Origin: Syntrophaceae bacterium
GTDB taxonomy: Bacteria; Desulfobacterota; BSN033; UBA1163
Direction: 5' to 3'
Assembly: GCA_013388645.1 (NCBI GenBank)
Contig: JACAEV010000145.1
Span: 1 to 58,586, forward strand
DNA: 58,586 bases
A program made the translations under genes and the position numbers. A model generated the notes under the pieces. It was not told the DNA's origin. It did not search any database and was given only the letters and a program-made list of their open reading frames with translations. Positions 2,013-47,289 of the stretch are shown piece after piece (position 1 is the first letter of the stretch; each line of letters begins with the position of its first letter).

Positions 2013-2747
2013 ATGTCAATTGCTTTTGAACTTTTCAAATCCATCGGTAAAAGGCCGTGCCCTCCCGGCTCCAGAGTGGACCGCTGCCCAATAGTAATCA
2101 ACGAAAACAGCGAGGATCTTTTAACGTCGAATGTGTTTGGGCTTTTGAAGTTTCTACCGCCGACCGCATGGCCAATCCCCTTACTCGAAATGACCTTCAA
2201 AGGAAGGACTTTCGGCCCTATTGAACGGGGCAAGATCAAGGTCGAATTCTGGAAGAAGCTACCCTCGCCACCCGGAGCCAAATACCACGAAGGGACACCG
2301 GAGATCGACATCGTCATAAAGATTGGCCGCCTGATCGTCCTTCTTGAAGCAAAATACCGATCTCCGATACAGGGAGAGCTCGCCCGTGAGCATAAGAGAG
2401 ACCAGATTCTCAAATACTTGGACTGCGGGGTTCACAACCTCTGGCCAGAATCCGGGACCCCCTGTGAGATCCTTTTCGTTCTTCTGACAGACATGGAACG
2501 AGAACCAGAAACTCTGTCCCAGTACAGGGATCCCGAGAAGATACTCGCGGGACTCACCCAAGCTCGGCCCTTCATCGATTACGAAGATGTAAGCAGAAGA
2601 TTGGCCAGGAACATCGGACATGCCAGATGGAGAGACCTATTACAGATTCTGGAGAATCAGGATGCCAAGAGGCTGAACCCGACAGAGTCGATGATCATCG
2701 CAGACCTCATTGTCTATTTGAGACATAAACTCCGGGCTACAAAATGA
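2013..2747 (+). CDS. PD-(D/E)XK nuclease-like protein, paralog of the gene at 39117
   Basis: Motif EIDIVIKIGRLIVLLEAKY; shares FELxKxxGKxxCPP..., SEDLLTxNVFGxLK and KYxEGxxExD with the 39117 ORF. Confidence 0.6.
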   Translation: MSIAFELFKSIGKRPCPPGSRVDRCPIVINENSEDLLTSNVFGLLKFLPPTAWPIPLLEMTFKGRTFGPIERGKIKVEFWKKLPSPPGAKYHEGTPEIDIVIKIGRLIVLLEAKYRSPIQGELAREHKRDQILKYLDCGVHNLWPESGTPCEILFVLLTDMEREPETLSQYRDPEKILAGLTQARPFIDYEDVSRRLARNIGHARWRDLLQILENQDAKRLNPTESMIIADLIVYLRHKLRATK

Positions 2748-11484: not shown

Positions 11485-14235
11485 GTGGAGAATAAGTCAA
11501 TTCTAAAAGAAATATTGGAAACCCCCAGACCTCTTTCCGAAGAACAAAAAAAGGCCGTCTTATCCGAGAGCAAATATCTCAGAATAGTTGCCGGTGCCGG
11601 TACTGGCAAGACAGAAACACTCACACGCCGTATCGCCTATCTCCTTCTTTATAAAGCACAAGAACCTGCTTCCATCGTGGCTTTCACTTTTACAGAACGG
11701 GCTGCGCAAGGCATGAAGAGCCGCATTTACGAGAGGGTGCGTCAACTCAAGGGTGAAGACGCCTGTGCTAAACTCGGAGAGATGTATGTGGGCACAATCC
11801 ATGGATATTGCCTTCAGATCCTTGAAGATAAGTTTGGCTATGGCGACTACGATCCGCTGGACGAAAATCAGGAGATGGCTTTTATTCTCCGAGAAGGGTG
11901 GGGCTTGGGCTTGACCAAGGACGGAGGCTACTCCAAGAATTGTGGCGAATTCTTAAGGAGTGTGGACGTCGTTTATAACGAACTTTTCTCTCATGAGAAC
12001 CTTGGCCAAAAAGCGCCAGATTTTTATAGACAGTTTACGAAATATGAAGAACTCCTCAAGAGACACAGGCTTATCACCTTTGGTCAAATGATCGCTCTTG
12101 CAGTGCAGAAACTGGAAACAAACCCAAAGATTCTCTCAAATATTAATCATCTAATAGTAGACGAATACCAAGATATTAACAGGGCCCAAGATAGACTCAT
12201 TCAGCTAATTGGGCGAAATGCCAGCACTTTTATAGTCGGTGATCCAAGACAAAGCATCTACCAATGGCGTGGCTCTGATGAAAGATGTTTCGAGGAATTT
12301 TTGAGAAATTTTCCAATATGCGAAAAGGTCAGCATCAAGGAAAACTGGAGGAGTGTGCCAGCCATCGTTAAGGCAGCAAATGGATTTGCTGAAAGCTTCG
12401 AGAGCACAAGGTATGAGCCGCTTGCGCCAACCCGTGAACAGACCAGCCCCGTTTATGTAACAGATTTCGATATGCCTGAGGACGAGGCCAAATGGATCGC
12501 AAGACAAATCAAAGAGTTGGTGGAAGAGAGAAAGGCATGCCGATATCCGGACATTGCCATACTGCTTCGGAGCGTATCAACCTCTGCGAAACCATTTCTT
12601 GACATCTTTCGTAACGAAGACATCCCCTACGTTGTCGGTGGGAAAATTGGATTATTTCAAAGGGACGAATCCCAGGCAGTTGGAAGATTGTTTGCGTGGC
12701 TCTATGAGTGGGGATTTTGGAAGGAAGGTTTCTTTGGAGAAGGTGGCTACATGGATGGTGATGACTTGCTGAAATCTGCAATAGAAAAATGGAGGTCTGT
12801 CAGCAAGTTGCGGGTGGAATCAAAAGACTTATCCAAGGCCCTAACGATATGGAAAGAAAACGTTCTGAACAACGCCTTCAAGAATTTCACGTCGATATAT
12901 CAAGAGCTCCTCATAACCCTCGGCTTTCTCAAACTCAACCCCGGTGATAAACTCCATGCGGCGATAATGGCAAACTTAGGCCGTTTCAATACATTACTCA
13001 CCGATTATGAAACATCCATTAGGTTAGGCGGTAGGAAACCTGACTGGCAAAATACTCTTAAGGGTCTCTGCTGGTATATGAACACATATGCCACCGGAGC
13101 CTATGAAGAGCAACCTACAGAGGATCTGCGTGGAATCGAAGCCGTTCAAGTCATGACGATCCACCAAGCAAAAGGGCTTGAGTGGCCTGTAGTATTTGTG
13201 CCTTGCTTGACAGCAAGAAGGTTTCCCACAAGCCGAACAGGCCAGAAACAACATTGGCACATCCCCAGAGATTTGGAGGGATTTGACGTAAAACGCTATG
13301 AAGGCGGGATTGAAGACGAGAAAAGGCTCTTTTATGTTGCCATTACCAGAGCCAAAGACGTTCTTTGTTTGAGTCATTTCAAGCGCCTGACCAACTCCCA
13401 AAGGCCAAGCCAATTTTTCAATGTGGTCAACGATCTTGCAAAAAGGATCGATCAAAATAAGGGCATCGATTCAGCACACCTCATAACAGATACTGAAAAT
13501 GATGAAATCCAAGCATTCTCTGCAGGAGAGATCATTACCTATCACAGATGCCCTTACCTTTACTGTCTCAGAGAGATGTGGGGCTATCAATCAGGTCTTG
13601 ACACGGAGATAGGATACGGGAAGAGCCTACACTATTGCCTTAGGTGCGTAAGTGAACTGATAAGAGAAGGAACAAACCCCGAAAAAGCCGTTCGAGAGAC
13701 AGTGAAGGAGAAATTCCACCTACCTTTTGCGGGTGGGAGGATGTTGGAGACGATGAGAGAGGCAGCCGAGAATATACTGACCCAGTTCGTTAAGCGTCAT
13801 GAGCAAGACATGCTCCGTATACAAGAGGTCGAAGCCAGACTCGAATTTCCACTTGAGAAAGCTACCATAACAGGAAGGGTCGACGTCATAATTAGGGGTA
13901 ATGATGATAAACCAAGCCTTGAAGTCCGAGACTACAAGACCTCCGATGCTGTAACTACGTTTAAAGAATTGTGCTTGCAACTTCAGCTCTATACATTAGG
14001 ATTGAAAAAACTTGAGCGGCCCGTTGACAGTGCATCCGTTGCATACCTTGATCCGAAACATAAAGGGAATGAGATTGAACCCGTCCCCATTCACCAGGAT
14101 GATTTGAAAGCAGCAGAACAAGAGGCTGAAAACAGCATTAGGGGCATTCGCAAAGCATCGTTTCCTCCAAAGCCGGGGGATCATTGCAAGAATGCTTGCG
14201 ACTTTCCGCAAATATGCAAATGGAGTAATGCTTGA
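11485..14235 (+). CDS. UvrD/PcrA/AddA-like SF1 helicase with C-terminal PD-(D/E)XK nuclease
   Basis: IVAGAGTGKTETLTRRIAYLL, LIVDEYQDINRAQ, GDPRQSIYQWRGS, VMTIHQAKGLEWPVVFV, LFYVAITRAKD; C-term GRVDVIIRG...LEVRDYKTS and terminal Cys motif CKNACDFPQIC. Confidence 0.93.
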   Translation: MENKSILKEILETPRPLSEEQKKAVLSESKYLRIVAGAGTGKTETLTRRIAYLLLYKAQEPASIVAFTFTERAAQGMKSRIYERVRQLKGEDACAKLGEMYVGTIHGYCLQILEDKFGYGDYDPLDENQEMAFILREGWGLGLTKDGGYSKNCGEFLRSVDVVYNELFSHENLGQKAPDFYRQFTKYEELLKRHRLITFGQMIALAVQKLETNPKILSNINHLIVDEYQDINRAQDRLIQLIGRNASTFIVGDPRQSIYQWRGSDERCFEEFLRNFPICEKVSIKENWRSVPAIVKAANGFAESFESTRYEPLAPTREQTSPVYVTDFDMPEDEAKWIARQIKELVEERKACRYPDIAILLRSVSTSAKPFLDIFRNEDIPYVVGGKIGLFQRDESQAVGRLFAWLYEWGFWKEGFFGEGGYMDGDDLLKSAIEKWRSVSKLRVESKDLSKALTIWKENVLNNAFKNFTSIYQELLITLGFLKLNPGDKLHAAIMANLGRFNTLLTDYETSIRLGGRKPDWQNTLKGLCWYMNTYATGAYEEQPTEDLRGIEAVQVMTIHQAKGLEWPVVFVPCLTARRFPTSRTGQKQHWHIPRDLEGFDVKRYEGGIEDEKRLFYVAITRAKDVLCLSHFKRLTNSQRPSQFFNVVNDLAKRIDQNKGIDSAHLITDTENDEIQAFSAGEIITYHRCPYLYCLREMWGYQSGLDTEIGYGKSLHYCLRCVSELIREGTNPEKAVRETVKEKFHLPFAGGRMLETMREAAENILTQFVKRHEQDMLRIQEVEARLEFPLEKATITGRVDVIIRGNDDKPSLEVRDYKTSDAVTTFKELCLQLQLYTLGLKKLERPVDSASVAYLDPKHKGNEIEPVPIHQDDLKAAEQEAENSIRGIRKASFPPKPGDHCKNACDFPQICKWSNA

Positions 14236-16601: not shown

Positions 16602-17861
16602 GTGTTGATTCTGCCAATGGACAACGCCTGGAGGTGGGCTTTCGGGGTGATGGCCAAAAATTCTTACTTATTAACCGACGGGGGTTTAAAGAACACGGCG
16701 AGCCATGTTCAAAAGAAGGGATTTGAATCTGACACAAAAACCTTGCGAAAGAAGGTTATCCAATCCCTGAAAAAGCAAGGGTTCCTCTTTGACGGACAAA
16801 AGATTAGTCTTCCCGAATATATTGATAAGGAAGGAATTCGACAGCTTCATCAAGAAGCCGTCCAAACAAGAATAGCGCGGTCTAAGGAGGGGCTCATTCG
16901 CCGTGAGGCTCGCTTGCTCTCATACATTGCTTCGGGCAGAGAAGTGGATCCTGATAAGATCTCTCCCAGGCTGGTTGAGGTGAAACCGAACACGGAGAAC
17001 GAGCTGCTTTTTAGGTATGCTACCCTCCATTGGAGCATACCTGTTTCTTCCGGATATGGAAGGCGCCTAAGATTTCTCATCTTTGACCAGAATAATGGCA
17101 AACTCATCGGTCTTTTTGGGCTTGGCGACCCGGTTTTCAGCCTCGCAGCAAGGGATAAATGGGTTGGCTGGAATAAAGAACAAAGAGGAGAAAGATTGAA
17201 ACACGTAATGGATGCGTTCGTTCTGGGTGCCCTTCCGCCTTACTCCTACCTTATATGTGGGAAACTGGTTGCGATGCTTCTCGCGAGCGATGAGGTGCGC
17301 GAGGCATTTCGCAAGAAGTATTCAGGACAAACGTCCCTGATTAATCGGGAAAGCTTTGATGGAAGACTTGTTTTGATTACAACAACCTCAGCGCTTGGCC
17401 GGTCTTCAATATATAATCGCGTGAACTGCAATGGAAGGGGATTGTTCCATCGTATTGGATATACGTCGGGGTCAGGGGAGTTCCATTTTGCAAACGGTCT
17501 TTATACTGAGCTTAGCCGCTTCGCTGGCCTTCATTGTCAGCCGACGGCCAAACAAGAGCGCTGGGGTGTGGGATTTCGAAACAGGAGAGAGATCGTACGC
17601 AAGGTCCTTTCTTTGCTTGGCCTTCCTGATAATCTGATCTACCATCAAGTGCAGCGGGAAGTCTTTGCAATCCCTTTGGCCGCGAACACCCAGCAGTTTC
17701 TTCGGGGAGAACATGAGCGGGTTCTATGGTATCATATGTCGGTTCAAGAGATATTTGATTATTTCAAAGACCGCTGGCTCATGGGAAGGGCAGAGCGGGA
17801 TTCAAGCTATCGCAAATTTAGATCTTCATCCTATGCCTTATGGATGAAGAAAGAGGATTAA
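16602..17861 (+). CDS. DUF4338 / DruA-like protein
   Basis: LRFLIFDQNNGKLIGLFGLGDPVFSLAARDKWVGWNKEQRGERLKHVMDAFVLGALPPYSYLICGKLVAMLLAS matches the DUF4338/DruA pattern. Confidence 0.7.
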   Translation: MLILPMDNAWRWAFGVMAKNSYLLTDGGLKNTASHVQKKGFESDTKTLRKKVIQSLKKQGFLFDGQKISLPEYIDKEGIRQLHQEAVQTRIARSKEGLIRREARLLSYIASGREVDPDKISPRLVEVKPNTENELLFRYATLHWSIPVSSGYGRRLRFLIFDQNNGKLIGLFGLGDPVFSLAARDKWVGWNKEQRGERLKHVMDAFVLGALPPYSYLICGKLVAMLLASDEVREAFRKKYSGQTSLINRESFDGRLVLITTTSALGRSSIYNRVNCNGRGLFHRIGYTSGSGEFHFANGLYTELSRFAGLHCQPTAKQERWGVGFRNRREIVRKVLSLLGLPDNLIYHQVQREVFAIPLAANTQQFLRGEHERVLWYHMSVQEIFDYFKDRWLMGRAERDSSYRKFRSSSYALWMKKED

Positions 17862-17865
17862 AAAA

Positions 17866-19014
17866 ATGGGAACCGAAGAGACCCCCTTTGTCGATCTTCC
17901 CGCCGCACTGGTGGAAGAAGTTCTCCAGCAGACGGCAGAGGTAAGCGAGATTCTTCTTGAGTCATTCAAGAAGGTCAAGGCTGATAAGGATAGTTTCAAG
18001 AAGCAGATACAAGAAAAGGATCTGGTGGGGAACGAATCCTCCCTCGGATACCCTCCCTTACCCACCACGTGCGGAGCTGATGGTTCCTACGGGATCGAAC
18101 GCCTCTTAACTGCGGATCTTGTGGCAGCCGCAGCCGTGGCGGTTGAAGGACTGACGCCACCATCTGAGAAGAGGCACTGGGAACAGCCAAGGCACACAAC
18201 TTATGTGAAACCCGAAACACATCATCCAGACACGGCCACTGTGGTAAGAGCCATCATGATCGGGAGCGAGCTGGTTTTAGCCGGTAAAGCACCTCACGAC
18301 TTGATCATGATTGATGGGTCCCTCACCATTCCGATCATCTATTTCAACCAGGCAATAAGTAAAGCTCATGAAGCCCCAGAGCTCCAATGCTCAAGAGATT
18401 TCATCGAGAGAATTTCCGACTTCCTGGAGGCTTATGCCTCGATATTGGCATCCGAGCGATCGGATAGAAATTTCAGTGGTCTGCCAAAATATTCCACTCG
18501 GCGTGAAATTGGGCGACTCTTGGGATGGCCTCCACAATACGATGACAGAAGCATGCTGACCTTTCTTCTCAATCCTGGCGAATTCACGAAGCCTATGACC
18601 ATGGAACAACCTGAGCAGAGATGGCACCTTTACACCAGCAACTTGCCGGGGGCAATGCAGACTAAAGCAAGCGAACTGGCTGAGATCATTATCAACAATT
18701 TGGAGCAGGTTTCTATTCTCTACTATAAACCACACGATTGGATACCGGCCCTTCGCATTGAAGTCCCCAAGGCCGTTGCAACCAATAAACACCGACTTGC
18801 CATTGTCCTTCAGGGAATCAAACACCAGTGTGCCACTCCTTCGATGTTGGAACCTTATCCCCTGTATCTTGCCGACAGAACAGTTAAGGCCCTTGTTCGC
18901 GCAATCCCCACCTTTCGTCAGGTGACCACGCAAAGAATTTCTGAGAAGTACACCGGGAATATCGGAGAGGTTTTTATGGCCATGCACGGCTATCGCACCG
19001 AATCAGGGAGGTGA
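17866..19014 (+). CDS. NurA-like 5'-3' nuclease
   Basis: CGADGSYGIERLLTADLVAAAAVAVEG near the N-terminus and DLIMIDGSLTIPIIYFNQAI; directly upstream of HerA. Confidence 0.65.
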   Translation: MGTEETPFVDLPAALVEEVLQQTAEVSEILLESFKKVKADKDSFKKQIQEKDLVGNESSLGYPPLPTTCGADGSYGIERLLTADLVAAAAVAVEGLTPPSEKRHWEQPRHTTYVKPETHHPDTATVVRAIMIGSELVLAGKAPHDLIMIDGSLTIPIIYFNQAISKAHEAPELQCSRDFIERISDFLEAYASILASERSDRNFSGLPKYSTRREIGRLLGWPPQYDDRSMLTFLLNPGEFTKPMTMEQPEQRWHLYTSNLPGAMQTKASELAEIIINNLEQVSILYYKPHDWIPALRIEVPKAVATNKHRLAIVLQGIKHQCATPSMLEPYPLYLADRTVKALVRAIPTFRQVTTQRISEKYTGNIGEVFMAMHGYRTESGR

Positions 19015-20780
19015 GTATGACCAACGCCCCAAAGAATCTCGATACTATCTTGGGTCAAACAGAAAGACTCGGAGTAGTCGGTTCTCCTTCGTCCACATCA
19101 GAGCTGGCCATAGACATCCTGGGATCTGCCGTTACAAGAAAGCTGGTTGGGGAGTTAGCCTTATTTCACTTCATCCAGGATAACGCCCCGCATTACGCTC
19201 TTGGGCAAATTACTGAGATCCAACTCCGTAACATATGGCATGAAGACCCAACTATGCGAAGCCTTATCCGCCAAAGGGGGCGGGTGGACGCAGTAAGCGA
19301 AAGGCAAGATACTCACCTTGGAAAGATGGGAGTGAGTGCCGTATTCCAAAGAGGTGGACAGGCCGGATATGAGCCAAGCATTCTGGGAACGGTCCCTTCC
19401 ACTGGAACACATATACACATCGTGTCGGACGACATTCTTGATGAGCTTCTCCACCCCTATCAAGACCAGATTTTCTATCTTGGTCATGTCTATGGGTCAA
19501 AGCCAAAACTCCCTCTCTGGTTCAAGCACTTTGATCGAGGACCAGATGGAGCTGGAGAAGCCTACCATATCGGCGTGTTTGGGAAAACCGGTTCTGGGAA
19601 GTCCGTTCTGGCCAAGATGATTCTCTTGGCCTATGCGCGCTATCCCAAGATGGCGCTACTTGTGATCGACCCTCAGGGAGAATTCGCACGTGACATGAGA
19701 CCAGGTGGAACCACGGGCGAGTTTCCGCTGCCCACCGGGGATATCATGCGGAAGATGGGGAAGCAAATTGTTGTCTTGACTGTCAGAAACCTTGTACTGG
19801 ATCGCTGGGAGCTTTTTGAACAGATTCTTTTTGAGGGACAGTTCTTTGAGCGGCTTACAGTTCCAAAAGGCGAGAATCGGGAACTCGCATGCGGTATCCT
19901 ATCCGACCGTCTCCAGAAAGCGAAGATCAAACTTACCGATCTTCATCTGAGAAAATCTTTTGACGAAGCGTGGAAGATGCTTCAGGACGAGCGCGTGCAG
20001 AGGGTCTTCTACCGAACGGAGGCATCCCGAGCGCGGTTCAATGCGGCATTGGAGGACTCTGACCCCAATGAATTTTTCTCACAGTATTGGGGACCTGTGG
20101 CAGAGCTTTTTCGGGAAGACCGACAGGGAGCAAAAAGCATCAACAAAGCCCTTAGCTGGTTACTCAGTGTGGAAACGGATAACCGACCTGTTCTGGTGAT
20201 TGATCTTTCCAGGGAGCAAGCTCATGGTCTCTTCTGGAACGACAAGATTCAGTCTCTGGTCATCAAAAGGCTCTTGGATGGGCTTAATCAGACGGCGGAG
20301 TATTTTTATAAAGAAGGTCAAAGCCTCAATGCACTTGTCGTGATAGATGAAGCCCATCGGCTTGCGCCCCGTGAACTCCCAAGAGAGGATGAAGCATCGC
20401 GTGGAGTAAGGGGAATGCTAATTGATGCTGCCCGAACGACGAGAAAATATGGGCTTGGATGGCTTTTCATCAGCCAAACCTTATCCAGCCTCCATAGCGA
20501 AATCCTCCAGCAGTTAAGGATATTCTTCTTTGGTTTTGGCCTCGGACTCGGTCAGGAATTTCAGTCTCTTCGCCAGCTCGTGGGGTCCTCAGGTCCGGCA
20601 CTTGATCTCTACCAGCTCTTTAGGGACCCCCATTCGGCTTTTGACGTTGCCAGCCGTCAATATTCTTTCATGACCATTGGACCAGTCAGTCCTCTTTCTT
20701 TCTCTGGAACACCTCTTTTCTTCAATGCCTTTAATAAAGTCGAGGCATTTTTGGACGCAAACGATTTGAAAAGCAAGTGA
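19011..20780 (+). CDS. HerA-like ATPase (DUF87/FtsK-HerA superfamily)
   Basis: HIGVFGKTGSGKSVLAKMILLAYARYP, LLVIDPQGEFARDM, ALVVIDEAHRLAP, LFISQTL. Confidence 0.9.
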   Translation: MSMTNAPKNLDTILGQTERLGVVGSPSSTSELAIDILGSAVTRKLVGELALFHFIQDNAPHYALGQITEIQLRNIWHEDPTMRSLIRQRGRVDAVSERQDTHLGKMGVSAVFQRGGQAGYEPSILGTVPSTGTHIHIVSDDILDELLHPYQDQIFYLGHVYGSKPKLPLWFKHFDRGPDGAGEAYHIGVFGKTGSGKSVLAKMILLAYARYPKMALLVIDPQGEFARDMRPGGTTGEFPLPTGDIMRKMGKQIVVLTVRNLVLDRWELFEQILFEGQFFERLTVPKGENRELACGILSDRLQKAKIKLTDLHLRKSFDEAWKMLQDERVQRVFYRTEASRARFNAALEDSDPNEFFSQYWGPVAELFREDRQGAKSINKALSWLLSVETDNRPVLVIDLSREQAHGLFWNDKIQSLVIKRLLDGLNQTAEYFYKEGQSLNALVVIDEAHRLAPRELPREDEASRGVRGMLIDAARTTRKYGLGWLFISQTLSSLHSEILQQLRIFFFGFGLGLGQEFQSLRQLVGSSGPALDLYQLFRDPHSAFDVASRQYSFMTIGPVSPLSFSGTPLFFNAFNKVEAFLDANDLKSK

Positions 20781-23709: not shown

Positions 23710-24936
23710 ATGGCACAACATCATCGACCCAGCGCCCTCTTTGCTTATACTGAGCAACCATTAAGCATCAGTGACGGGATATCTTTTATTCTCAAAGAGA
23801 TGGAGGAGGGGTTTCGGGTTGATGTCAACACATTGATGAATATCAAAAGAAGTTATGAGTCGACCCTCTTTAGTCTTGAGAAGGAGATCCAGGCCAAATC
23901 AGGGAAGGCCGTCAGGATCGATTCGAATAGAGAACTCGGAGATACTCTTTTTCGGGAGTTTTCCTTGCCTTCGTTGAGGAACACCCCAACCGGGAAGCCT
24001 TCTGTTGCTATTGATATTTTAGAGAAGCTTTGTGATTCCCATTCCGATACTCATCCGTTCCTGAAATCGGTGATCGAGTGTAAGAACGTTCAGTCCTTAA
24101 TCAAATCCACGAAAACCATCTTTAAGAAACTGGACTCGCAGGGCAGGATTCACCCTGAATTTAACCATTCAACCTGTCCTACTGGCAGGATCTATTCTTA
24201 TATCCAGAACCTGCCTAAGGAAATTAGGAGGGTTTTAATCCCGGATCAGGAAGGGAACGTCTTTATAGAACTTGATTGGTCTCAACAGGAATTGAGGATT
24301 CTTGGATCCCTGTCTCAGGAACCTGTGTTTCTTGACTGTTTTGCCAGAAATGAGGATCTCCACAGGAGGGTGATTTCCGAGATGTTTCATAAACCTATTT
24401 CTGAAGTGACAGATGAAGAAAGAAGGGCGGGAAAGACAATCAATTATGCTTTGATATACGGTCAGGAGGCACCAGGCCTTGCCTGGAAGCTAAACGTTCC
24501 TTTGAAAAAAGCCCAAGAACTAATCGATCAGTACTTCTCTTCATTGCCCACCATTCGGAGATTCAAGGATGAGATGAAGGAGAGATTTCTAAGAGAGGGC
24601 TGTTCAGAGACCTTCTTTGGGGAAAAAACTCGCTTGGATCTCGTTGGACCAAGCAGAGAGAGGGAACTCAGACGAGGGTTCAATCACATTATACAGGGAA
24701 CTGGAGCTGATATTCTAAGAATTACCCTCGTTAGGCTAAACGAAGCGTTAATGGGCACCGAGGCCAAGCTGAAGTTCTGTGCCCACGACTCGATCTACCT
24801 TGAAGCAAGAAAAGAGGACTCTGAACAAGTTGCAGCGTTAGCGAGATCTATCATGGAGATAGACTTCAGGGGCGTTCACCTCCCTGTCACAATCAAAACC
24901 CATCACGACTTCTCCATGGGAGAAGGTAACACCTAA
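23710..24936 (+). CDS. Family A DNA polymerase (polymerase domain only)
   Basis: Motif A ELDWSQQELRILG, motif B RRAGKTINYALIYG, motif C CAHDSIYLEA; too short for exonuclease domains. Confidence 0.92.
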   Translation: MAQHHRPSALFAYTEQPLSISDGISFILKEMEEGFRVDVNTLMNIKRSYESTLFSLEKEIQAKSGKAVRIDSNRELGDTLFREFSLPSLRNTPTGKPSVAIDILEKLCDSHSDTHPFLKSVIECKNVQSLIKSTKTIFKKLDSQGRIHPEFNHSTCPTGRIYSYIQNLPKEIRRVLIPDQEGNVFIELDWSQQELRILGSLSQEPVFLDCFARNEDLHRRVISEMFHKPISEVTDEERRAGKTINYALIYGQEAPGLAWKLNVPLKKAQELIDQYFSSLPTIRRFKDEMKERFLREGCSETFFGEKTRLDLVGPSRERELRRGFNHIIQGTGADILRITLVRLNEALMGTEAKLKFCAHDSIYLEARKEDSEQVAALARSIMEIDFRGVHLPVTIKTHHDFSMGEGNT

Positions 24937-24949
24937 CCTTCGCTCGCCG

Positions 24950-25034
24950 TCCTTTTGCATACTTTTCAGCCTTATATAGAGAGGCAATCAAATCCACCCG
25001 TTTCGTTACATTTTGTGACGAGGGAGGTGATCCC
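24950..25034 (+). promoter_or_regulatory. Promoter/leader element, copy A, upstream of the ligase operon
   Basis: CCTTTTGCAT...TATAGAGAGG...TCGTTACATTTTGTGACGAGGGAGGTGATCC closely matches 34039-34123. Confidence 0.55.
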
Positions 25035-25181
25035 ATGAAGGCGACCGAAGTTTCTAAGAAGCCCGCATTCAAGCCTGAACCGATTACCTTATTTTCTTTT
25101 GGGAGAGGCAAATGCCCACAGACAGGTTCTAACTGCGGCTTCATCCGTAAGACCTGCAAAGTCTATTGCTGGTTAAAGTAG
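25035..25181 (+). CDS. 48-aa Cys-containing small protein
   Basis: ATG after GGGAGGTGATCCC; MKATEVSKKPAFKPEPITLFSFGRGKCPQTGSNCGFIRKTCKVYCWLK. Confidence 0.5.
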   Translation: MKATEVSKKPAFKPEPITLFSFGRGKCPQTGSNCGFIRKTCKVYCWLK

Positions 25182-25193
25182 GGAGGGAAGATC

Positions 25194-26453
25194 ATGAAGA
25201 GGCTATCCGAATTGATCAAAGAATGTGAAGAAAAAGGAATCCCTATTCCTGAGGGCAAAAAGGTCTCAAGAGAAACGCTTATCTCCAGACTGGCCAATCA
25301 TCATCTTGAGCAAAACCAGGCGGACATTCCACCTCTCGAACAGGTCTCTCCTCAGTTGGCGAGAGACATTACCGAACTGCCGGAAAAAGAAAGAGAAGAG
25401 GTTTTAAAGAGTGACCGATTCGCCTGTGGTGAGAAAAAGAACGGCATCAGGGGCATTCTTCATATCAGACCGGAAGGAAACCGGTTCACCTCAAGGAACC
25501 GATGCTCCGACACTTACCTTTTAAATGAACTTACAGTGAACGTCCCACACCTTTGCAACCTGAATTTAGACCAGTGGGAAGGGTCGATCTTTGACGGAGA
25601 ACTCTATCTGCCCGATAGCTTTATCAAGCTTGACTCTTTGACCAACGCCCTTGAGGCCACCACTGCTTTACTTCACTGCTCACCGGACAAGGCACGGGAT
25701 TACCAGGAATCCACAGGCCAGAAAATTCACTACCACGTATTCGATGTACTGAAGGCTAATGGTCAAGATCTAACCTCCCTGCCTCTGAGGGAAAGAATTC
25801 GATGTCTAAACGAATTTCAGAGCTTTATCAAATCATCAGGGCAAGGAGAACATATTCGATTTGAGGAACTCATCTTCCAAGAGAAGGAGGAATACTTCAG
25901 AAAGATCATCGAGGCAGGAGGCGAGGGAATCGTTTTAAAAAATCTTAACGCACCTTATTTCCCGGGTGCAAGGTCTCAATCCTGGCTGAAGCTCAAGAGA
26001 TCTAACACTGTTGATGCCATCATCATTGGCCATGACCGAGGCAAAGAATGGGACAAGAAAGGACTCATTGGGTCCGTTGAATTGGGGGTCTTTGATGAGA
26101 ATGGTGATCTCCGATCCATCGGGAGGGTCTCATCTCTTTCGTTACAGAGGAGAATTGAGATGACACAGGTGGTTGATGGGATTCCCACATTGAAAAAGGA
26201 ATACCTTGGAACAGTCGTGGAGTGCCGATTTCAAGAGCTAAATAAGAATCTCAAAGGCCGACACCTCCAAATCCTGAGCTTCAGGGATGGGCAAAACGCA
26301 AAACCGATCTCCGAGTGCTGTTTGAACCTTTCAAAGGAGGAAGAGAATTTAACCCGTGTGGGTATCCAAATTCCTGAGCCTGTGAACGAAAGATTGATTG
26401 AAATCGGGAATACGAGAACTGCCCCCATAAATTTTAGGACCACTGAAGATTAG
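25194..26453 (+). CDS. ATP-dependent DNA ligase
   Basis: Motif I-like CGEKKNGIRG, FDGELYL, AGGEGIVLKNLNAPYFPG, WLKLKR. Confidence 0.85.
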   Translation: MKRLSELIKECEEKGIPIPEGKKVSRETLISRLANHHLEQNQADIPPLEQVSPQLARDITELPEKEREEVLKSDRFACGEKKNGIRGILHIRPEGNRFTSRNRCSDTYLLNELTVNVPHLCNLNLDQWEGSIFDGELYLPDSFIKLDSLTNALEATTALLHCSPDKARDYQESTGQKIHYHVFDVLKANGQDLTSLPLRERIRCLNEFQSFIKSSGQGEHIRFEELIFQEKEEYFRKIIEAGGEGIVLKNLNAPYFPGARSQSWLKLKRSNTVDAIIIGHDRGKEWDKKGLIGSVELGVFDENGDLRSIGRVSSLSLQRRIEMTQVVDGIPTLKKEYLGTVVECRFQELNKNLKGRHLQILSFRDGQNAKPISECCLNLSKEEENLTRVGIQIPEPVNERLIEIGNTRTAPINFRTTED

Positions 26454-27367: not shown

Positions 27368-27521
27368 CCAACGACACCCAGGGGGATGAACAAAAGTCAA
27401 AGCACCGAAAGCTCGACCCAATGTCAATCATCCAAATTTCGCAACTCAGTGTAATCCAATCAAATCCGCAGAATTGTCAAGCAAATCAAGCCAACCGGAT
27501 GAAAGGGAAAAAGGAAAAATA

Positions 27522-27986
27522 ATGCCACATGGGAAACTCTTTAACGGCATTGACATCGTCAGCGTCAAACTTGTGAGGGAAAAGGACGCCATTTACGGTG
27601 CAAAGACCATCAGAAATCCTGATGAGTTGGCTTCCATCGTCAAAAGATTCCTTGCCGATACAGACAGGGAGGTCTTCCTCGCCATCAACTTCAGCACAGC
27701 CAACACGATAAACAGTATCCACATCGTGAGCATAGGCTCCCTTGACAAAACGATAGTCCATCCAAGGGAAGTCTTTAAGGCCGCCATACTCTCAAATTCA
27801 AGCAGTATTGCACTGGCTCACAACCATCCATCCGGAAGCCTTAATCCCTCTCCGGATGACATTCTGATCACAAAGAAACTGGTCCAGTGTGGTGAGATTC
27901 TCGACATCAAAATAATTGACCACATCATAGTTGCAGACGACCAGTACCTCAGCTTTGCCGAACGAAAGATAGGAGGGCTCGGATGA
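27522..27986 (+). CDS. RadC/JAB family protein
   Basis: IALAHNHPSGSLNPSPDDILITKKL...LDIKIIDHIIV. Confidence 0.9.
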   Translation: MPHGKLFNGIDIVSVKLVREKDAIYGAKTIRNPDELASIVKRFLADTDREVFLAINFSTANTINSIHIVSIGSLDKTIVHPREVFKAAILSNSSSIALAHNHPSGSLNPSPDDILITKKLVQCGEILDIKIIDHIIVADDQYLSFAERKIGGLG

Positions 27987-30482: not shown

Positions 30483-33302
30483 TCAGAATTGCGTGAATTT
30501 GGCTACCCTGCACTGCCTGAGCTGTATGCGTTCTTCGCTGCACCGGCCTGAATCTACCGGCTTTGATCCCTTGGGGCGCTTCCGTTCCTTGAATTGGTCA
30601 ATTTCTTTCTCACCAGAGATCAGAAAACTCAAGAACGATTTTTTCTGAAAACGACAAGTCTGAGCAATCCCGAGCAGTCGCAGGTACTCAACAGCCATGC
30701 GTTTGAAGAAGCTTCCTGAAATTTTCCTTTGGATTGCCAAATGTCGACTCGCCCTCTCCGCCATATTGTTGTTCCAGGGTATTCCGTCCTCATCCAAGAA
30801 CTTAAACAGGCTTTCCCGATAACGATTAAACCGCTTCTGATACTTTTGGGTGACTTCACCCTGGTAATCTTTGGTATCGACGACATGCCCGTAAAATTGC
30901 CCTACTAACCGTCTATGTTTATTGAGGTGTCGTCGCTTTAGGCCATATTTCTGAACGTCGGTCATAATCGGAACAAGCAGGTCCTTAAAGGCTCCAACAA
31001 AACCCTCAAACTCCTGGTCATAAGGGTTCTTCCAAAGGTCATCATTTAAATCTCGGATCAGGTGAACCAAACATTTTTGTTGTCGATAGCAACATGAATC
31101 ATACCCAGCATAGAAATCGGAGATCAGAACGCCACCGTAACCATTGAGGATATCCTGAACTAAGGTGGATTCCCGCGTCTCTGTTAGTCGAAAAACCACG
31201 TGAGTGCCGTCTGTAAATACCCAAACGTAGTGATTGATTCCCTGAATATTGATCTTCGTCTCATCAACATGAATGAAAGGACTTGTCAAAATCCTCTTCA
31301 TCAGCATTTTTTCGGTGAAGGTATAATACTCAGCCAAATCAGTCATAAAGTTCACAATGCTGCCTTCGCTGATTTGCTCGCAGAACAAGTCTTCAGCTAC
31401 CCGTGATATTGCACTGTATGGAAGCCGAAGTGTTATCCGCTGGTATGCCGCCCAAGCTCGAAAGCGATGCCCAAATAAACGACCTCTGAACTGCCTGATT
31501 CCTGGTGGAGGATAGCAACGATGGCAGTGGGGGCAATAGGCAATGGCCCCCACATATTTCGTAATCGTCTTTTTACACCCATTCTTCGTAAATACCAGGT
31601 CAATGACAGTGTGCTCAGCCAGTTTATCAGATGGTGATAAGGGCTGGCCTCTGTGTCGGGGACACCTAATGGCGCGTCTAACACTAATTAGCTTGCCGGC
31701 TTTCGCGGGAATAATTCTTTGAAACCCCTGATGTCCTTGGGGAGCACCCAGTTTCTTTTGCCCTTTCTTTTCCTCGGTTTCGTCCTGTCGTATTCCAATG
31801 CGGTTCCTCCTGTACTCGGCGTGAGCTGACCTCAGTATCCCTTCTAACGAATCATGAATATACTGTCCGGAACAGGTTGTGTTCTGCTTTGGAGTGTCAG
31901 CAAAGTCTACGTCAGACCTATTAGTAGCTGCATGACCAATGTTCCGCAGTTCAGTGACTAAGAGGCGTAGTGCCTGGCAATCTTCCAAATTATAAGTGAG
32001 AATTTGTTCCTTGAGAATGCAGTCCTTGGAAGCTTCCCATTGCAACCACCACACGACACTTTGCAGGCCAGAGGCATCTGAAAAACTCCAGGTCGCACCT
32101 ACGAATTTCCCCAAATCCTTCAAGGTATTTGACCTTGTAGGGAAATACACCTTCCCGAAAATGAATGAGGTGACATTGACGAGCCGCCTTTTAATTGAGT
32201 CACAATCCAGATCATATTTCTTGGCGATTCGATCAAGGCCCTTGGGCTCGTAGCTCCCGTAATGGTAGATGGGAGCATCAGGATGTTCTTCGGCAATACG
32301 CAAGAGAGTAGTAAAAATATTGCGTTCGTCTTCGGGCGAATCCGCCCACAATGAATGGCGTTCGACACTCCCCTGAGCCGAGATAATGAGGCCAATGAGG
32401 TAGTAAGTACCGTGATCCGGTACGCCCTCAATATCGAGGAAAAGCTCGGTCGGATGCACAGGAATAGATGGTGGCTGGTGGATGTATATTTTTCCGGTAC
32501 GCAGTGCTAACGCCTGCAGCTCCAGGTTGAACCTGGATGGGACATGTGCTCGTTTTCTTCTCTGGCGCCTGGGCTTGAAAAGATAGGAAAGTTGATTGAT
32601 GGTAAAAATACCTTTCTTGTGATACTTCCTCATGACCTTGGGAGTCATATGATACAGCAGGCTCAGATTGTCCTCTTTCTCAGCTTGATCGAGACAGGTT
32701 CTCTTGAAGGGGCAGATCCGGCAATGGTCTTTGAGAATAATTTGAGGAGGCTGCGGAGGAATATTGGCTTTCCATGTTTTTAGGGTATCGATAATCGGTC
32801 TGAGTTGTGTGCTCATCTTTGCCAACTGGACACGAGACACGTCACCCGCTGCGTTTACAATAACCCCATTCACACGACGGTAATTAAGGGCCTTGACGAG
32901 AACGTGTCCAATGACTGCCAGTCGGACTTTTTGATCCGTAGTAATGATTTGAGTGCCTACGACCAGATGTGGCACATAGTGCCTCCGTGCCTTCAAGGGA
33001 CCAAGCCGCATACGAACCAGAGCATCAACCTTGACCTCCAGGTCGTCGGCCTTAAACTCGTACGAAGTAATAACGTCGGCATTGTGAAGGTCTCCCTGGT
33101 TTCTATATTGCCGAATGTTGAATCCATCTGCTGCCAACGAATCAAGATAGTTCTTCAGACTCATAGAGGCGTATGCATCAAGAAGAGCGAGGTATTCGTG
33201 AGGGGGATCACCTGCATCTCCGCGTAAAAGCAGGTAACCCTTACGTTGGCAAAGCCAATATGCCGCCACAAGTTCAGGCGTAATGGAATCATCGGGTGGC
33301 AT
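30483..33302 (-). mobile_element. Fusion protein: Cas4/RecB-like (TM0106-like) domain + DEDD RNase H-like exonuclease + IS66-type DDE transposase (copy 1)
   Basis: Cys motifs LCQRKGYLL and CRICPFKRTC; exonuclease LFLDIEGVPDHGTYYLIG, YHYGSYE, YNLEDCQAL; IS66 motifs HVDETKINIQGINHYVWVF, VLISDFYAGYD, WNNNMAERASRHLAI. Likely ATG at 33302 (MPPDDSITPEL). Confidence 0.85.
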
Positions 33303-33591
33303 TGCAGCCCCAGCCGTTCTGGCTATCAAATTTCACACTCATACCTGTTAACGTGGAATTATTACTGCCCTGCTTTCGAGACACTTTCGTCGCCATCGAT
33401 TAGGTCAATATGCATGCGTCATCCTAGGGAGAACTCTTCGCAATATACATATTTCATTGAGATTGGTCAAATTACCAAGTGCAATCTTGCATGACGGTCG
33501 AAATCATTCAACCAAAGACTTCAGGAAGTTATCCTCGGGAAAGCATAGCCTTACCCAAGTATCGTGGATTTTGGTTGTTGGATGCTCCATC

Positions 33592-36154: not shown

Positions 36155-36526
36155 GTGATCAGCATGACTTCAAAGCAACTCGAAAGAAAGATCAATCAGC
36201 TCTACACCCGGAAGAAACTGGTCGAGACGGTGGGAAGTCTGGAGGAGGCCATAAAGGCCTTCTTGCTCATCGAAGGCAAGACAGAAATCCACACAGAGAA
36301 ATTCATCATTAGCCTGGTGAATGGAAGACTGGACATCTCTGTGAGAACGTCCATCGATCCCAACCAGCTCATTCTCGACTTCACCAATCCCAAAGAAAAG
36401 GAGGAATGTAGCAATGAAAGTATTGACCCACAGAAAACCATTACTGGAAGGACTCGACCTGGTCAAAGACGCCGTGTCCAAGCACACTGCTCTCCCGATC
36501 CTGAAAGATGTGAAGATCACTGCTGA
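36155..36526 (+). CDS. Small hypothetical overlapping dnaN start out of frame
   Basis: ORF runs 113 nt into the dnaN CDS. Confidence 0.4.
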   Translation: MISMTSKQLERKINQLYTRKKLVETVGSLEEAIKAFLLIEGKTEIHTEKFIISLVNGRLDISVRTSIDPNQLILDFTNPKEKEECSNESIDPQKTITGRTRPGQRRRVQAHCSPDPERCEDHC

Positions 36527-37523
36527 AGGAGACAGCGTCTATCTTTACACTACTAACCTCACGACCGGCATTAAGACTCGTGTCAAAGAGGCCGATGTCA
36601 TTGAACCAGGCATTGCCCTCTGCGATACCATGAAACTCCTTTCCATCGTAAAGGAGCTACCTGATGCCGAGATCATTCTAACCAAAGAGGAAAACGGCCA
36701 CGTGAGAGTGGAGTGCGAGAACGTCAGCTTCAAGTTGGTAGGTCTCAGTGAAGAGGAATTCCCGAACGAGATGGAACCCTCGGAGGAAAACGGCTTCTCT
36801 ATAGGTCAGGAATTCTTCACAGCCTTATTGAAAGTCAGACATGCTGCCTCGAAGGAAGAATCCCGATACAACATCAACGGCATCTACTTCGACAAAGCTA
36901 TCGTGGCGACAGACGGGCATCGACTGAGCCTGACCAGGGATACCAACCCACTGAGAAATACCCTTGTCCCTTCTGAATTCGTTAACACGATTCTGAGACT
37001 GAGGAGGAACGGGAACCAGTCCTACAGACTCTCTCGATCCGACACCACCATCTTTTTCTGTTCAGACGACCTGATAATCCACTCCAGGCTGATCGATGGA
37101 GAGTTCCCGGATTACGAACAGGTCATTCCACAGACCCATGAAAGAACAGCCACCATGGACAGACGCAAGCTCCATCACGCCATCAAGAGAATCATCCTGA
37201 TGAGCGACAAGTCCAATCAGATCCGTTTCGAGTTTAATAGAAATCGGGTTCTCTTGACATCGGCAAATCCAGACGCGGGTGAAGCCCGAGAAGAGTTCGA
37301 ATGTCATTATGAATCAACCTCTCCCAAAGAAATATCCTTCGCCATAGGCTTCGCTGGCAAGTATATTCTCGATGTCCTTGAGGTCTTAGAAGGTGACCAG
37401 GTGACATTCCTTATGAACGACCCCGGCCAAGCAATGACGATAGAGGAGAAGAATTCCACTCACATCATCATGCCAGTCCGCCTCATGGAATCATTCCAAC
37501 AGGAGGAAAGTAAGGCAGCTTAA
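36414..37523 (+). CDS. dnaN: DNA polymerase III beta subunit (sliding clamp)
   Basis: ALPILKDVKI, YNINGIYFD, IVATDGHRLS, IDGEFPDYEQVIP, AGKYILDVLEVLEGDQVTF, IIMPVRL. Confidence 0.9.
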   Translation: MKVLTHRKPLLEGLDLVKDAVSKHTALPILKDVKITAEGDSVYLYTTNLTTGIKTRVKEADVIEPGIALCDTMKLLSIVKELPDAEIILTKEENGHVRVECENVSFKLVGLSEEEFPNEMEPSEENGFSIGQEFFTALLKVRHAASKEESRYNINGIYFDKAIVATDGHRLSLTRDTNPLRNTLVPSEFVNTILRLRRNGNQSYRLSRSDTTIFFCSDDLIIHSRLIDGEFPDYEQVIPQTHERTATMDRRKLHHAIKRIILMSDKSNQIRFEFNRNRVLLTSANPDAGEAREEFECHYESTSPKEISFAIGFAGKYILDVLEVLEGDQVTFLMNDPGQAMTIEEKNSTHIIMPVRLMESFQQEESKAA

Positions 37524-37563
37524 CCATCTTGATCAAAGAGAGAACGCAAAAGGAGGAACCACC

Positions 37564-38223
37564 ATGAACAGAGCACTTTTAGAAAAACCATTTGAACCAA
37601 GTCAAATCAAACAGCGTCAGGGCAAATTCGGCCATATTTTAGACTATGTTGAAGGTCACGTTGTCACTTCAAGGTTAAACGATGCCTTTGACGGCAACTG
37701 GTCATTTGAGGTCGTGAAATATCGAATTCTTAAAGACACTGACGAAGTCCTGGTCCTCGGAAAGCTAACGGCCGAGGGGGTCACCAAGATGGCTTTTGGT
37801 TCAAAGGAGATTGAAAGGAGCAAAGACACAAAAGCCATCATCAGCCTCGGAGACGACCTCAAAGCCGCTTCGACGGATGCATTGAAGAAAGCAGCCTCAC
37901 TCCTCGGAGTAGGCCTATATCTTTACTCCGATCAGAGACCCAACGGTAAGCCAGAGGAGGGAAAGTCAGAGACACCGGATAAAGGGCTTCCTAAAGGCAA
38001 TGAAAAGAACCAACCCGGACCTAAGAATGAACCAAGCTTCGAAGGAGATAATGGAAGCCGCCTTACCAATAAACAGCTCGCAATGATCTTCGCCGTAGGA
38101 AAGTCAAAGGGCCTCCAGACCAAAGAGATCAAGGACAAGGCTCTGGCCACATTCAACAAGAACCTGAACTTCCTCACCAAGGCAGAGGCATCAATATTCA
38201 TCAACGCTCTCCAGGCATTATGA
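37564..38223 (+). CDS. Rad52/Rad22 family single-strand annealing protein
   Basis: YVEGHVVTSRLNDAFDGNWSFEVVKY...SLGDDLKAASTDALKKAASLLGVGLYLY. Confidence 0.85.
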   Translation: MNRALLEKPFEPSQIKQRQGKFGHILDYVEGHVVTSRLNDAFDGNWSFEVVKYRILKDTDEVLVLGKLTAEGVTKMAFGSKEIERSKDTKAIISLGDDLKAASTDALKKAASLLGVGLYLYSDQRPNGKPEEGKSETPDKGLPKGNEKNQPGPKNEPSFEGDNGSRLTNKQLAMIFAVGKSKGLQTKEIKDKALATFNKNLNFLTKAEASIFINALQAL

Positions 38224-38253
38224 GGGAACAATAACTAAAAAGGAGGACACATC

Positions 38254-39078
38254 ATGCTAAAGAAAGAAACCAGCAAAGAGGCCTTTGAACGATACATTCA
38301 CATCTCCTACTCCCAGCTAAAGACTTATTTGACATGTCCGCAGAAGTACGAATTCCAATACGTGATGGGACTACCGTGGGAATTCATCCCGGAATACTTT
38401 CCCTTTGGAAAAGCAATCCATGAGGCCGCAAAGATCTTCTATCGAACGCTGAAAGAGACCGGCAGAAGGCCCACTCTGGAAGACACGACCGAACACTTCA
38501 AGGCATGCTGGGACAAAGAGACCCAGGTCAACAATATCCGATACAAAGAAAACCAGAGCAGGGACACCTTGAGGGATAAGGGTGCCCAACTGGTTAAAGT
38601 GTTCTACGAAAATGTTGCGCCACAGCGAATCATTGGGGTCGAAGTCCCTTTCTCTGTGGACATGGTTTTGGAGGAAACAGGCGAAGTCCTTCCATGCAAA
38701 CTGGCAGGCATCTTCGATCTAATCGAGTCAGACGAGGAGGGAAACTTTATCATCGTGGAACTAAAGACCGGAGCAAAGAGATTCACCGACGACCAGATAG
38801 ACCTGGATCTCCAGGGGACGCTCTACTCATACGCATTGAGGCAGATGGGATACCAAACAGACGGCGAAGAAACCCTGGTCAGATACGATCAACTTCTCAA
38901 GCTGAAGAACCCCGACATGGAAACATACTATGCCGTGAAGGGAAACGTTCATTACATATGGGCATATACCCTTGTGAGGAAGGTTCTGAAAGCGGTTAAT
39001 AACGAAATCTTCTTCCCCATACCAGGCTGGCAATGCAAAGAATGCCCATTTGGAACAACGTGCCAGCAAGAAAAGTAA
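38254..39078 (+). CDS. PD-(D/E)XK nuclease (RecB/Cas4-like)
   Basis: SYSQLKTYLTCPQKYEFQYV, GIFDLIESDEEGNFIIVELKTG, C-term CKECPFGTTC. Confidence 0.85.
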   Translation: MLKKETSKEAFERYIHISYSQLKTYLTCPQKYEFQYVMGLPWEFIPEYFPFGKAIHEAAKIFYRTLKETGRRPTLEDTTEHFKACWDKETQVNNIRYKENQSRDTLRDKGAQLVKVFYENVAPQRIIGVEVPFSVDMVLEETGEVLPCKLAGIFDLIESDEEGNFIIVELKTGAKRFTDDQIDLDLQGTLYSYALRQMGYQTDGEETLVRYDQLLKLKNPDMETYYAVKGNVHYIWAYTLVRKVLKAVNNEIFFPIPGWQCKECPFGTTCQQEK

Positions 39079-39116
39079 ACGCCACCGACATCAACCAGCT
39101 AAGGAGCGACGATCAC

Positions 39117-39890
39117 ATGTCGATTATCTTTGAACTGTATAAAACATCAGGCAAGAAAGTCTGCCCACCCAATTATGTCCGAAAAAATAACTGCCCTCTC
39201 ATTGTCCGAACAACGAGTGAAGATTTATTAACTGCAAACGTCTTTGGCATTTTAAAGAACCTCGACCCCACCATCTGGCTTCGGAGATTCTTAGGAGAGG
39301 CGATCAAAGGGAAGGATTTCAGCCGCCACACCTTTGAGAACCTCTCCTTTGAATTCTGGAAGCGATATCGACCACCAGCCAACAGAAAGTACCGAGAGGG
39401 TATCTCGGAGGTGGATGTCACGATCTCTTATAATGACGGGATCATTTTTATTGAGGCGAAATACCTTGCCCCAGTGAACCTGAGGACAACAAGCGACCCA
39501 CGAAGAGATCAAATCATCAGATACCTCGATTTGGCTGCATACCACTACCTCAATCATCCCGATAGCGTCAAAGAGTTTTATTTCGTCCTTATCATAGACA
39601 CCGAGAAACCGCCCTGGATTCTGACCCGATACAGATACAGTCAAAACCTTATCAAGGGATTGACCAACCCAGGACTATTTAAGCCCCATGTAGACGTTGC
39701 CAGGTTGCTCTCTAAGGAGATAGGCTGGCTTACATGGAAGCAGCTTATAAAGATCCTGGTGATTACGAAAGGGCATTTCAGAACCGAGGCCGAAAGAAAG
39801 TTTGTGGAAGACCTTATCATCTATTTGGATTATAAAATCAGGGAGGGAGAACGAATCCGAACCGAGAGAAAACAACTCAGCTTTTGGTGA
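39117..39890 (+). CDS. PD-(D/E)XK nuclease-like protein, paralog of the gene at 2013
   Basis: ATG at 39117; SEVDVTISYNDGIIFIEAKYLAP; collinear similarity to the 2013 ORF. Confidence 0.6.
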   Translation: MSIIFELYKTSGKKVCPPNYVRKNNCPLIVRTTSEDLLTANVFGILKNLDPTIWLRRFLGEAIKGKDFSRHTFENLSFEFWKRYRPPANRKYREGISEVDVTISYNDGIIFIEAKYLAPVNLRTTSDPRRDQIIRYLDLAAYHYLNHPDSVKEFYFVLIIDTEKPPWILTRYRYSQNLIKGLTNPGLFKPHVDVARLLSKEIGWLTWKQLIKILVITKGHFRTEAERKFVEDLIIYLDYKIREGERIRTERKQLSFW

Positions 39891-47177: not shown

Positions 47178-47289
47178 AATGCTACTCCTTCCTGCCACTG
47201 AGGCACTCGAAATCAGATTCATTGGTACGCGTTAGATTCTTACGCAATAGATTCTGAGAATTTATCTCTAACATCTTGAAACCCATTGG

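What the first reader, a model, noticed from the sequence alone, without database searches (positions are those of the whole stretch)
16602..20780. Tight DruA(DUF4338)-NurA-HerA operon: candidate undescribed defence system
Seen in the sequence: a DUF4338/DruA-like ORF, a NurA-like ORF 4 nt downstream, and a HerA-like ATPase whose start overlaps the NurA stop. Established: DruA is known from Druantia, where it is associated with the large helicase DruE, and NurA-HerA is the archaeal end-resection pair. No DruE-like protein is visible here. Inference: a DruA-type protein feeding DNA to a HerA-NurA translocase/nuclease would be a distinct architecture.
Basis: partly seen in the sequence, partly recalled or inferred. 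Interest (0 to 1): 0.85.

Follow-up and report, generated by a model that had tools for sequence, protein, structure and literature searches.

The report
DruA–NurA–HerA three-gene DNA-degrading cassette
Three adjacent genes, for a DNA-cutting enzyme, its DNA-pumping motor and a partner from the Druantia defence family, recur as one unit in about 14 bacterial and archaeal phyla with the partner repeatedly swapped, which points to an undescribed (and still untested) defence system.

Summary
16602-20780 encodes a full-length DruA (Pfam E 6e-117), a divergent NurA nuclease (AlphaFold model: the ten best PDB matches are all NurA) and a HerA translocase, with 4-nt spacing and a 4-nt overlap. The triplet recurs. 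Of 36 further NurA loci found in genome and viral collections, 34 carry DruA beside NurA-HerA, in about 14 phyla, and no other gene is shared between the flanks. Against the nearest relative, DNA homology covers 16729-20780: it starts inside DruA and stops at the HerA stop codon. No DruE is present. DruE-linked Druantia DruAs form a separate clade. NurA and HerA co-evolve (rho 0.93) but DruA does not follow them (rho 0.22; AU p 0.0005): DruA has been swapped between two deeply diverged NurA-HerA clades. A third, unrelated NurA-HerA pair also has DruA. DruA has a GNAT fold, and its short transposon-linked relatives are homologous to the DNA-modifying enzyme Mom. Best reading: a compact defence module in which HerA-NurA destroys DNA and DruA supplies self/non-self discrimination, perhaps by DNA marking. 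Architecture and partner swapping are shown. Defence and mechanism are inferred, and flanking genes gave no clear defence enrichment.

The parts
16602..17861 (+). druA: long-form DruA (DUF4338, PF14236), GNAT-fold protein; start uncertain (GTG 16602 or ATG 16653; conserved from about 16729)
   Evidence: Pfam DruA E 5.6e-117 and PADLOC DruA E 9.9e-122; AlphaFold pLDDT 91, PDB matches nearly all GNAT acetyltransferases; homology to L009 begins at 16729
17866..19014 (+). nurA: divergent NurA (RNase H-fold nuclease) with invariant D72 (DGS) and D150 (LDGS)
   Evidence: Pfam NurA E 3.3e-4; AlphaFold pLDDT 92, ten best PDB matches are NurA; D72 and D150 invariant in 33 sequences
19011..20780 (+). 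herA: HerA/FtsK-type hexameric DNA translocase with Walker A GKTGSGKS (191-198) and Walker B DEAHR (446-450)
   Evidence: Pfam DUF87 E 6.8e-12; motif conservation over 32 sequences; matches to HerA and TdpA PDB chains
16729..20780 (+). extent of the conserved cassette: the only segment homologous to L009 (81% nt identity), ending at the herA stop codon
   Evidence: blastn; flanking genes are not shared among 40 loci

Best explanation
A compact three-gene DNA-degrading defence module. Inferred mechanism: a HerA hexamer pumps double-stranded DNA into a NurA dimer, which degrades it. DruA is the self/non-self component. It has a GNAT fold and belongs to a family homologous to the DNA-modifying enzyme Mom, and most likely acts on DNA, either by marking host DNA so that NurA-HerA spares it or by reading DNA and licensing attack. 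Shown: the family assignments, the recurrent three-gene unit, NurA-HerA co-evolution, DruA exchange, the GNAT fold, and the Mom link through short DruA. Inferred: assembly, nuclease activity, target choice and defence. Between the two DruA roles, marking (about 0.35) is slightly favoured over reading or adapting (about 0.3), because exchangeability without co-evolution suggests the partners communicate through DNA.
For: Recurrence: 34 of 36 newly found loci carry DruA beside NurA-HerA, 31 of them with druA directly 5' of nurA, and the flanks share no other gene. Homology to L009 stops at the cassette edges. NurA-HerA path-distance rho 0.93 against 0.22-0.23 for DruA, and AU p 0.0005. L010/L036 and L017/L034 share DruA at the DNA level (76%, 71%) but not nurA-herA. 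A third, unrelated NurA-HerA pair also carries DruA. Patchy presence: 4 of 297 genomes of the phylum. NurA fold with invariant acidic residues and an intact HerA P-loop. DruA GNAT fold. Short DruA versus Mom: PHROG E 1e-6 to 3e-3 and hhalign 96%. Restriction-modification genes adjoin L006, L008, L009 and L022. Precedent: Mom-family GNATs fused to restriction endonucleases in jumbo phages (PMC7824862).
Against: No experiment exists. PADLOC counts in flanking genes are not clearly above control genes, and many loci sit among housekeeping genes. In long DruA the Mom positions (numbering from memory) H48, Y49 and D139 appear replaced and only the Y149 equivalent seems kept, by manual alignment. 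Mom and long DruA do not match directly. L040 has NurA-HerA without a nearby DruA.
Confidence: 0.6

Rival explanations
1. Restriction-modification-like system (specific form of the best explanation): DruA covalently modifies host DNA, as Mom does, and NurA-HerA degrades unmodified DNA, as proposed for TdpAB with TdpC.
For: GNAT fold; short DruA homologous to Mom; short DruA fused to or beside DDE transposases, so the family acts in DNA contexts; DruA exchangeable without NurA-HerA co-evolution; the NurA model also matches TdpB of the TdpAB complex (8wfd, E 1e-3).
Against: Mom positions H48, Y49 and D139 appear not conserved in long DruA; no direct Mom to long-DruA match; L040 has NurA-HerA without a nearby DruA, which should be harmful if DruA were the only protection.
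Confidence: 0.35
2. DruA is a non-catalytic DNA- or phage-sensing adaptor that recruits or licenses NurA-HerA, as it may recruit DruE in Druantia type I.
For: Mom catalytic positions appear lost in long DruA; long DruA serves two unrelated motors, DruE and NurA-HerA; extra sensor-like genes (sacsin/NOV_C; a pentapeptide-repeat protein with a NACHT-like look) sit between druA and nurA in L006, L022 and L023.
Against: An adaptor would need a conserved interface with NurA-HerA, yet DruA moves freely between clades. About 40 columns are invariant in 34 DruAs, which suggests a catalytic or ligand site.
Confidence: 0.3
3. A DNA repair or recombination module (end resection) of a mobile element, not defence.
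For: Canonical archaeal NurA-HerA resects DNA ends (PMC9960219, PMC12977600). The window is rich in replication and repair genes: UvrD-PDDEXK, PolA-like and ligase by Pfam; RadC, DnaN and Rad52/RecT-like by sequence reading.
Against: No Mre11/Rad50 among scanned neighbours or conserved flanks; patchy (4 of 297) and in 14 phyla without conserved neighbours; rarely inside such an element elsewhere; DruA swapping is not expected of a repair complex.
Confidence: 0.15
4. The cassette is a transposon-like unit and DruA is a mobility factor, as in insertion sequences.
For: Short DruA domains are fused to DDE transposases or adjacent to IS66/DDE transposases; the cassette is sharply bounded and horizontally spread.
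Against: No shared terminal inverted repeats or target duplications in 15 loci tested; no transposase in the cassette; the long DruA is a different subfamily.
Confidence: 0.05

Closest known systems
Druantia type I (DruABCDE)
   Same: Long DruA: Druantia-I DruA aligns full length (hhalign Prob 100, E 1.6e-105), about 41% identity to the window protein.
   Different: No DruE, and no DruB-D among the scanned neighbours. NurA-HerA takes the place of the DruE motor. DruE-linked DruAs form their own clade (99/96).
Archaeal and bacterial NurA-HerA end-resection complex
   Same: NurA fold and acidic residues, HerA translocase, tight gene pair and co-evolution.
   Different: No Mre11-Rad50 link seen, patchy horizontal distribution, constant association with DruA, NurA at the edge of the Pfam model.
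TdpABC (phosphorothioate-dependent HerA/NurA-like antiphage system; function recalled from own knowledge)
   Same: TdpB structure 8wfd matches the NurA model and TdpA is among the HerA profile's PDB matches. As recalled: a translocase-nuclease plus a third, DNA-modifying protein.
   Different: The third gene is a GNAT-fold DruA, not a TdpC-type enzyme.
HerA/FtsK capture systems, DndH and BRC (PMC10853773, PMC12839542)
   Same: HerA translocase with nuclease and sometimes a GNAT; DUF4338 was noted as a GNAT fused to DndF.
   Different: Those systems use REase, PglZ or BrxC components. NurA is not mentioned in the DndFGH paper and not found in the BREX paper.
Phage Mu Mom DNA-modification enzyme (Mom-family GNATs, PMC7824862)
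   Same: GNAT superfamily; Mom and short DruA are homologous over about 178 columns.
   Different: Long DruA is only transitively linked and appears to lack Mom's H/Y/D residues.

Membership tests
DruA family (PF14236) | Full-length match above cut-off | tested here: met
   390.6 bits against cut-off 27, profile 3-297 of 297
Druantia type I system | DruE helicase (about 1,800 aa, DUF1998/MZB) | tested here: not met
   No DruE among ten scanned neighbours; only an 820-aa MZB frame on another contig
Druantia type I system | DruB, DruC, DruD accessory genes | tested here: not met
   No PADLOC DruB-D hit among the ten neighbours scanned
Druantia type I system | DruA within the DruE-linked DruA clade | tested here: not met
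   Four DruE-linked DruAs form a separate clade, 99/96
NurA nuclease | NurA fold with DGS metal-binding aspartates | tested here: met
   Ten best PDB matches are NurA; D72 and D150 invariant; sequence alone is marginal (Pfam 20.7 vs 21 bits)
HerA translocase | DUF87 with Walker A and Walker B | tested here: met
   DUF87 E 6.8e-12; GKTGSGKS invariant, DEAHR nearly invariant
Archaeal-type NurA-HerA repair operon | Linkage to mre11-rad50 | tested here: not met
   Neighbour Pfam scan and no conserved flanking family across 40 loci
Mom-family DNA modification GNATs | GNAT fold | tested here: met
   Foldseek: nearly all of the 50 listed PDB matches are acetyltransferases, best 1y9k prob 1.00, E 3.6e-3
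Mom-family DNA modification GNATs | Mom catalytic residues (recalled numbering H48, Y49, D139, Y149) | tested here: inconclusive
   By manual alignment only the Y149 equivalent seems kept; no direct Mom to long-DruA profile match
TdpABC | HerA plus NurA-like pair | tested here: met
   8wfd among NurA-model matches; TdpA 8wet among HerA-profile matches
TdpABC | TdpC-type modification enzyme | not tested
   No TdpC model used; the third gene is DruA
Antiphage defence system | Demonstrated reduction of infection | not testable with these tools
   Needs plaque or transformation assays
Antiphage defence system | Enrichment among defence genes | tested here: inconclusive
   Restriction-modification or related genes adjoin several loci but counts are not clearly above control

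The most novel reading that the evidence does not exclude
A restriction-modification-like immune system with a new pairing: a DruA/Mom-superfamily GNAT marks host DNA with a possibly unknown base modification, and a HerA-NurA motor-nuclease destroys unmarked DNA. The marking enzyme is exchanged between otherwise unrelated motor-nuclease pairs. This would also suggest a biochemical role for DruA in Druantia.
Probability: 0.3. Interest if true: 0.88.

Novelty: new variant of a known kind. Interest (0 to 1): 0.75.

Why it matters
Druantia's DruA has no established biochemical role, and NurA-HerA is mostly known as a repair complex. A conserved unit that joins the two across about 14 phyla, with DruA as the exchangeable part, gives a small (4.2 kb), clonable system in which DruA's role (DNA modification or recognition) can be tested directly. 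The link from DruA through its transposon-borne relatives to Mom is a specific, falsifiable hypothesis for a family that Pfam names only after Druantia. If DruA marks DNA, this would be a new class of self-marking immune system and would bear on Druantia type I.

Tried and rejected
Extended operon: the window's MTase (22327), HEAT (20849), UvrD-PDDEXK (11485) and the ORF at 15130 were considered as members and rejected, because DNA homology to L009 stops at the cassette edges and no flanking family recurs in more than four loci; UvrD-PDDEXK recurs near the triplet in only three loci. Transposon hypothesis: no terminal repeats or duplications in 15 loci. Defence-island test: 115 flanking genes against 115 control genes with PADLOC gave no clear difference (MTase_II up to 4 members against 1; 145 against 120 families), so it is not used as support. 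Direct Mom to long-DruA profile match: negative. NurA search of viral contigs with a single sequence found nothing; with an alignment it gave two loci. PDB sequence search for NurA gave only a marginal hit, to Pyrococcus-type NurA 3tai, so the structure model was needed. NCBIfam has no model for this DruA or NurA. Element boundary: no second copy of the tmRNA 3' end in the genome, so the left end was not found. TdpAB papers are not in the held library.
Full report
Observation. Pfam and PADLOC place the first in DruA at E 5.6e-117 and 1e-121, at full profile length. The second is at the edge of the Pfam NurA model (20.7 bits against a cut-off of 21). An AlphaFold model from 33 relatives (pLDDT 92) has NurA structures as its ten best PDB matches, and the DGS and LDGS aspartates D72 and D150 are invariant. 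The third is a HerA (DUF87) with an intact P-loop. The GTG start of DruA is uncertain, because homology to relatives begins at 16729.

Recurrence. In the window's own phylum 4 of 297 genomes have this NurA, and all four have DruA beside NurA-HerA. A genome-collection scan with a four-sequence NurA alignment gave 34 loci and a viral-contig scan two more. DruA is present in 34 of these 36: directly upstream of nurA in 31, upstream with one inserted gene in L022 and L023, and downstream of herA in L025. L040 has no DruA in reach, and L041 is cut by the contig end. The loci come from about 14 phyla, including one archaeal MAG (L023) and the cultured Pyrinomonas, Tepidimonas and Thermovorax. NurA is split by an apparent frameshift in L012 and L038. 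The distance from the druA stop to the first conserved NurA motif is 14-42 nt in all canonical loci measured. No flanking gene family is shared by more than four loci. Against the nearest relative (L009), DNA homology is one block, 16729-20780, ending at the herA stop. The three genes are therefore the unit.

Converse test. In the own phylum the only DruA-family hits that cover the whole profile are the NurA-HerA-linked ones. The rest are short, of about 300 aa or fused, and many of those examined lie beside transposases or are fused to DDE transposases. In Chloroflexota 10 of 151 genomes have a long DruA: seven lie beside this NurA(-HerA), one (L154) beside an 1,820-aa DruE, one is unresolved, and one (L153) follows a NurA (Pfam E 1.6e-12) and a HerA that have no detectable profile or only marginal BLAST similarity to the window pair, although its DruA is 34% identical over 373 aligned columns.

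Not Druantia. Long DruAs on plasmids of Nitrosococcus, Meiothermus and Pseudomonas putida lie next to a large DEAD/DEAH helicase (DruE). They are about 41% identical to the window DruA and form, with L083, a separate clade (99/96). The window genome has no DruE-sized MZB protein.

Partner exchange. In trees of the same 33 loci, NurA and HerA path distances correlate at 0.93 and share 17 of 30 splits. DruA correlates at 0.22-0.23 and shares 6-7. Holding the eight loci of the second NurA-HerA clade together in the DruA tree costs 377 log-likelihood units (AU p 0.0005). At the DNA level L010 and L036 share druA (76%), and so do L017 and L034 (71%), while their nurA-herA genes do not align apart from about 170 nt. 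DruA is thus a module that has moved between NurA-HerA pairs while the three-gene composition was kept.

What DruA is. The model (pLDDT 91) has GNAT acetyltransferases as nearly all of its listed PDB matches, in line with a published note that DUF4338 is a GNAT domain (PMC10853773). Short DruAs hit the PHROG 'Mom-like DNA modification protein' (E 1e-6 to 3e-3). Profile comparison of short DruAs with a Mom alignment that starts from phage Mu gives 96% probability over about 178 columns, while shuffled, NurA and HerA controls stay under 1%. Short and long DruA match at 96%; long DruA and Mom do not match directly. By manual alignment, Mom's D139 and Y149 (numbering recalled) fall in the short-DruA motif ETFVD..GS.YKAANW, and long DruA seems to keep the tyrosine (Y228 in A4 numbering) but not the histidine, tyrosine or aspartate. 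The chemistry is therefore open. Mom-family GNATs paired with nucleases are known in jumbo phages (PMC7824862).

Mechanism. Established for the families: HerA is a hexameric translocase, and NurA a nuclease that degrades DNA threaded through it (PMC12977600, PMC9960219). Inferred here: the pair is a DNA shredder and DruA decides what is shredded. Exchangeability without co-evolution favours communication through DNA (a mark) over a tight protein interface, but an adaptor role is not excluded. Sacsin/NOV_C proteins (L006, L023) and a pentapeptide-repeat protein with a NACHT-like look (L022; reading of the sequence) between druA and nurA, and restriction-modification genes beside L006, L008, L009 and L022, fit a defence role. 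The formal flank comparison was inconclusive.

Novelty. No paper in the held library contains both Druantia and NurA, and only three contain DUF4338. HerA-nuclease defence systems and Druantia are known kinds. The DruA-NurA-HerA unit and its partner exchange appear undescribed, with the caveat that most subscription papers and preprints could not be searched.

Noticed in passing
window 30483-33329 (-) and 44370-47222 (-): Two ORFs of about 950 aa each join an N-terminal TM0106-type RecB-like nuclease domain to a C-terminal IS66 transposase. They are 33% identical to each other, and no further copy is in the genome.
   Followed up: partly
window 55832-58143: A large serine recombinase ORF runs at its 3' end into the tmRNA gene (57339-57713, -), with an SmpB-like ORF beyond it. 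This suggests an integrative element inserted at the tmRNA 3' end. No second copy of a 23-nt stretch of that end was found in the genome.
   Followed up: partly
L054, L060, L061, L062 (fusions); L053, L064, L071 and others (adjacent): Short DruA domains, homologous to the DNA-modifying enzyme Mom, are fused to DDE transposases or lie beside IS66/DDE transposases. A DNA-modifying or anti-restriction passenger of insertion sequences is possible.
   Followed up: partly
L006 11535-14666, L023 2769-5933, L022 5817-8114: Genes inserted between druA and nurA: sacsin/NOV_C proteins (L006; L023 by clustering) and a 765-aa pentapeptide-repeat protein whose N-terminal part looks like a NACHT ATPase.
   Followed up: no
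L154 4024-11925 and L086 315-8140: Druantia-like loci in Chloroflexota and Meiothermus have druE, druA and a PD-(D/E)XK gene (Pfam in L154; similar sequence in L086) next to druE, a possible Druantia variant.
   Followed up: no
L088 4893-9967 (Rhizobium plasmid pRlX5): A distant NurA-HerA pair without DruA is followed by a HATPase (HSP90/gyrase-B-type) gene, another possible three-gene arrangement.
   Followed up: no
window 2013-2747 and 39033-39890: Two similar ORFs (FELxKxxGKxxCPP..., EAKY motif) look like paralogous PD-(D/E)XK-type nucleases at two places in the element (reading and 8 translations).
   Followed up: no
window 11485-14235, 23710-26453, 27474-27986, 36414-39078: Replication and repair genes in one element: UvrD fused to PD-(D/E)XK, PolA-like polymerase, ATP-dependent ligase, and by sequence reading RadC, DnaN, a Rad52/RecT-like ORF and a Cas4-like exonuclease.
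   Followed up: no
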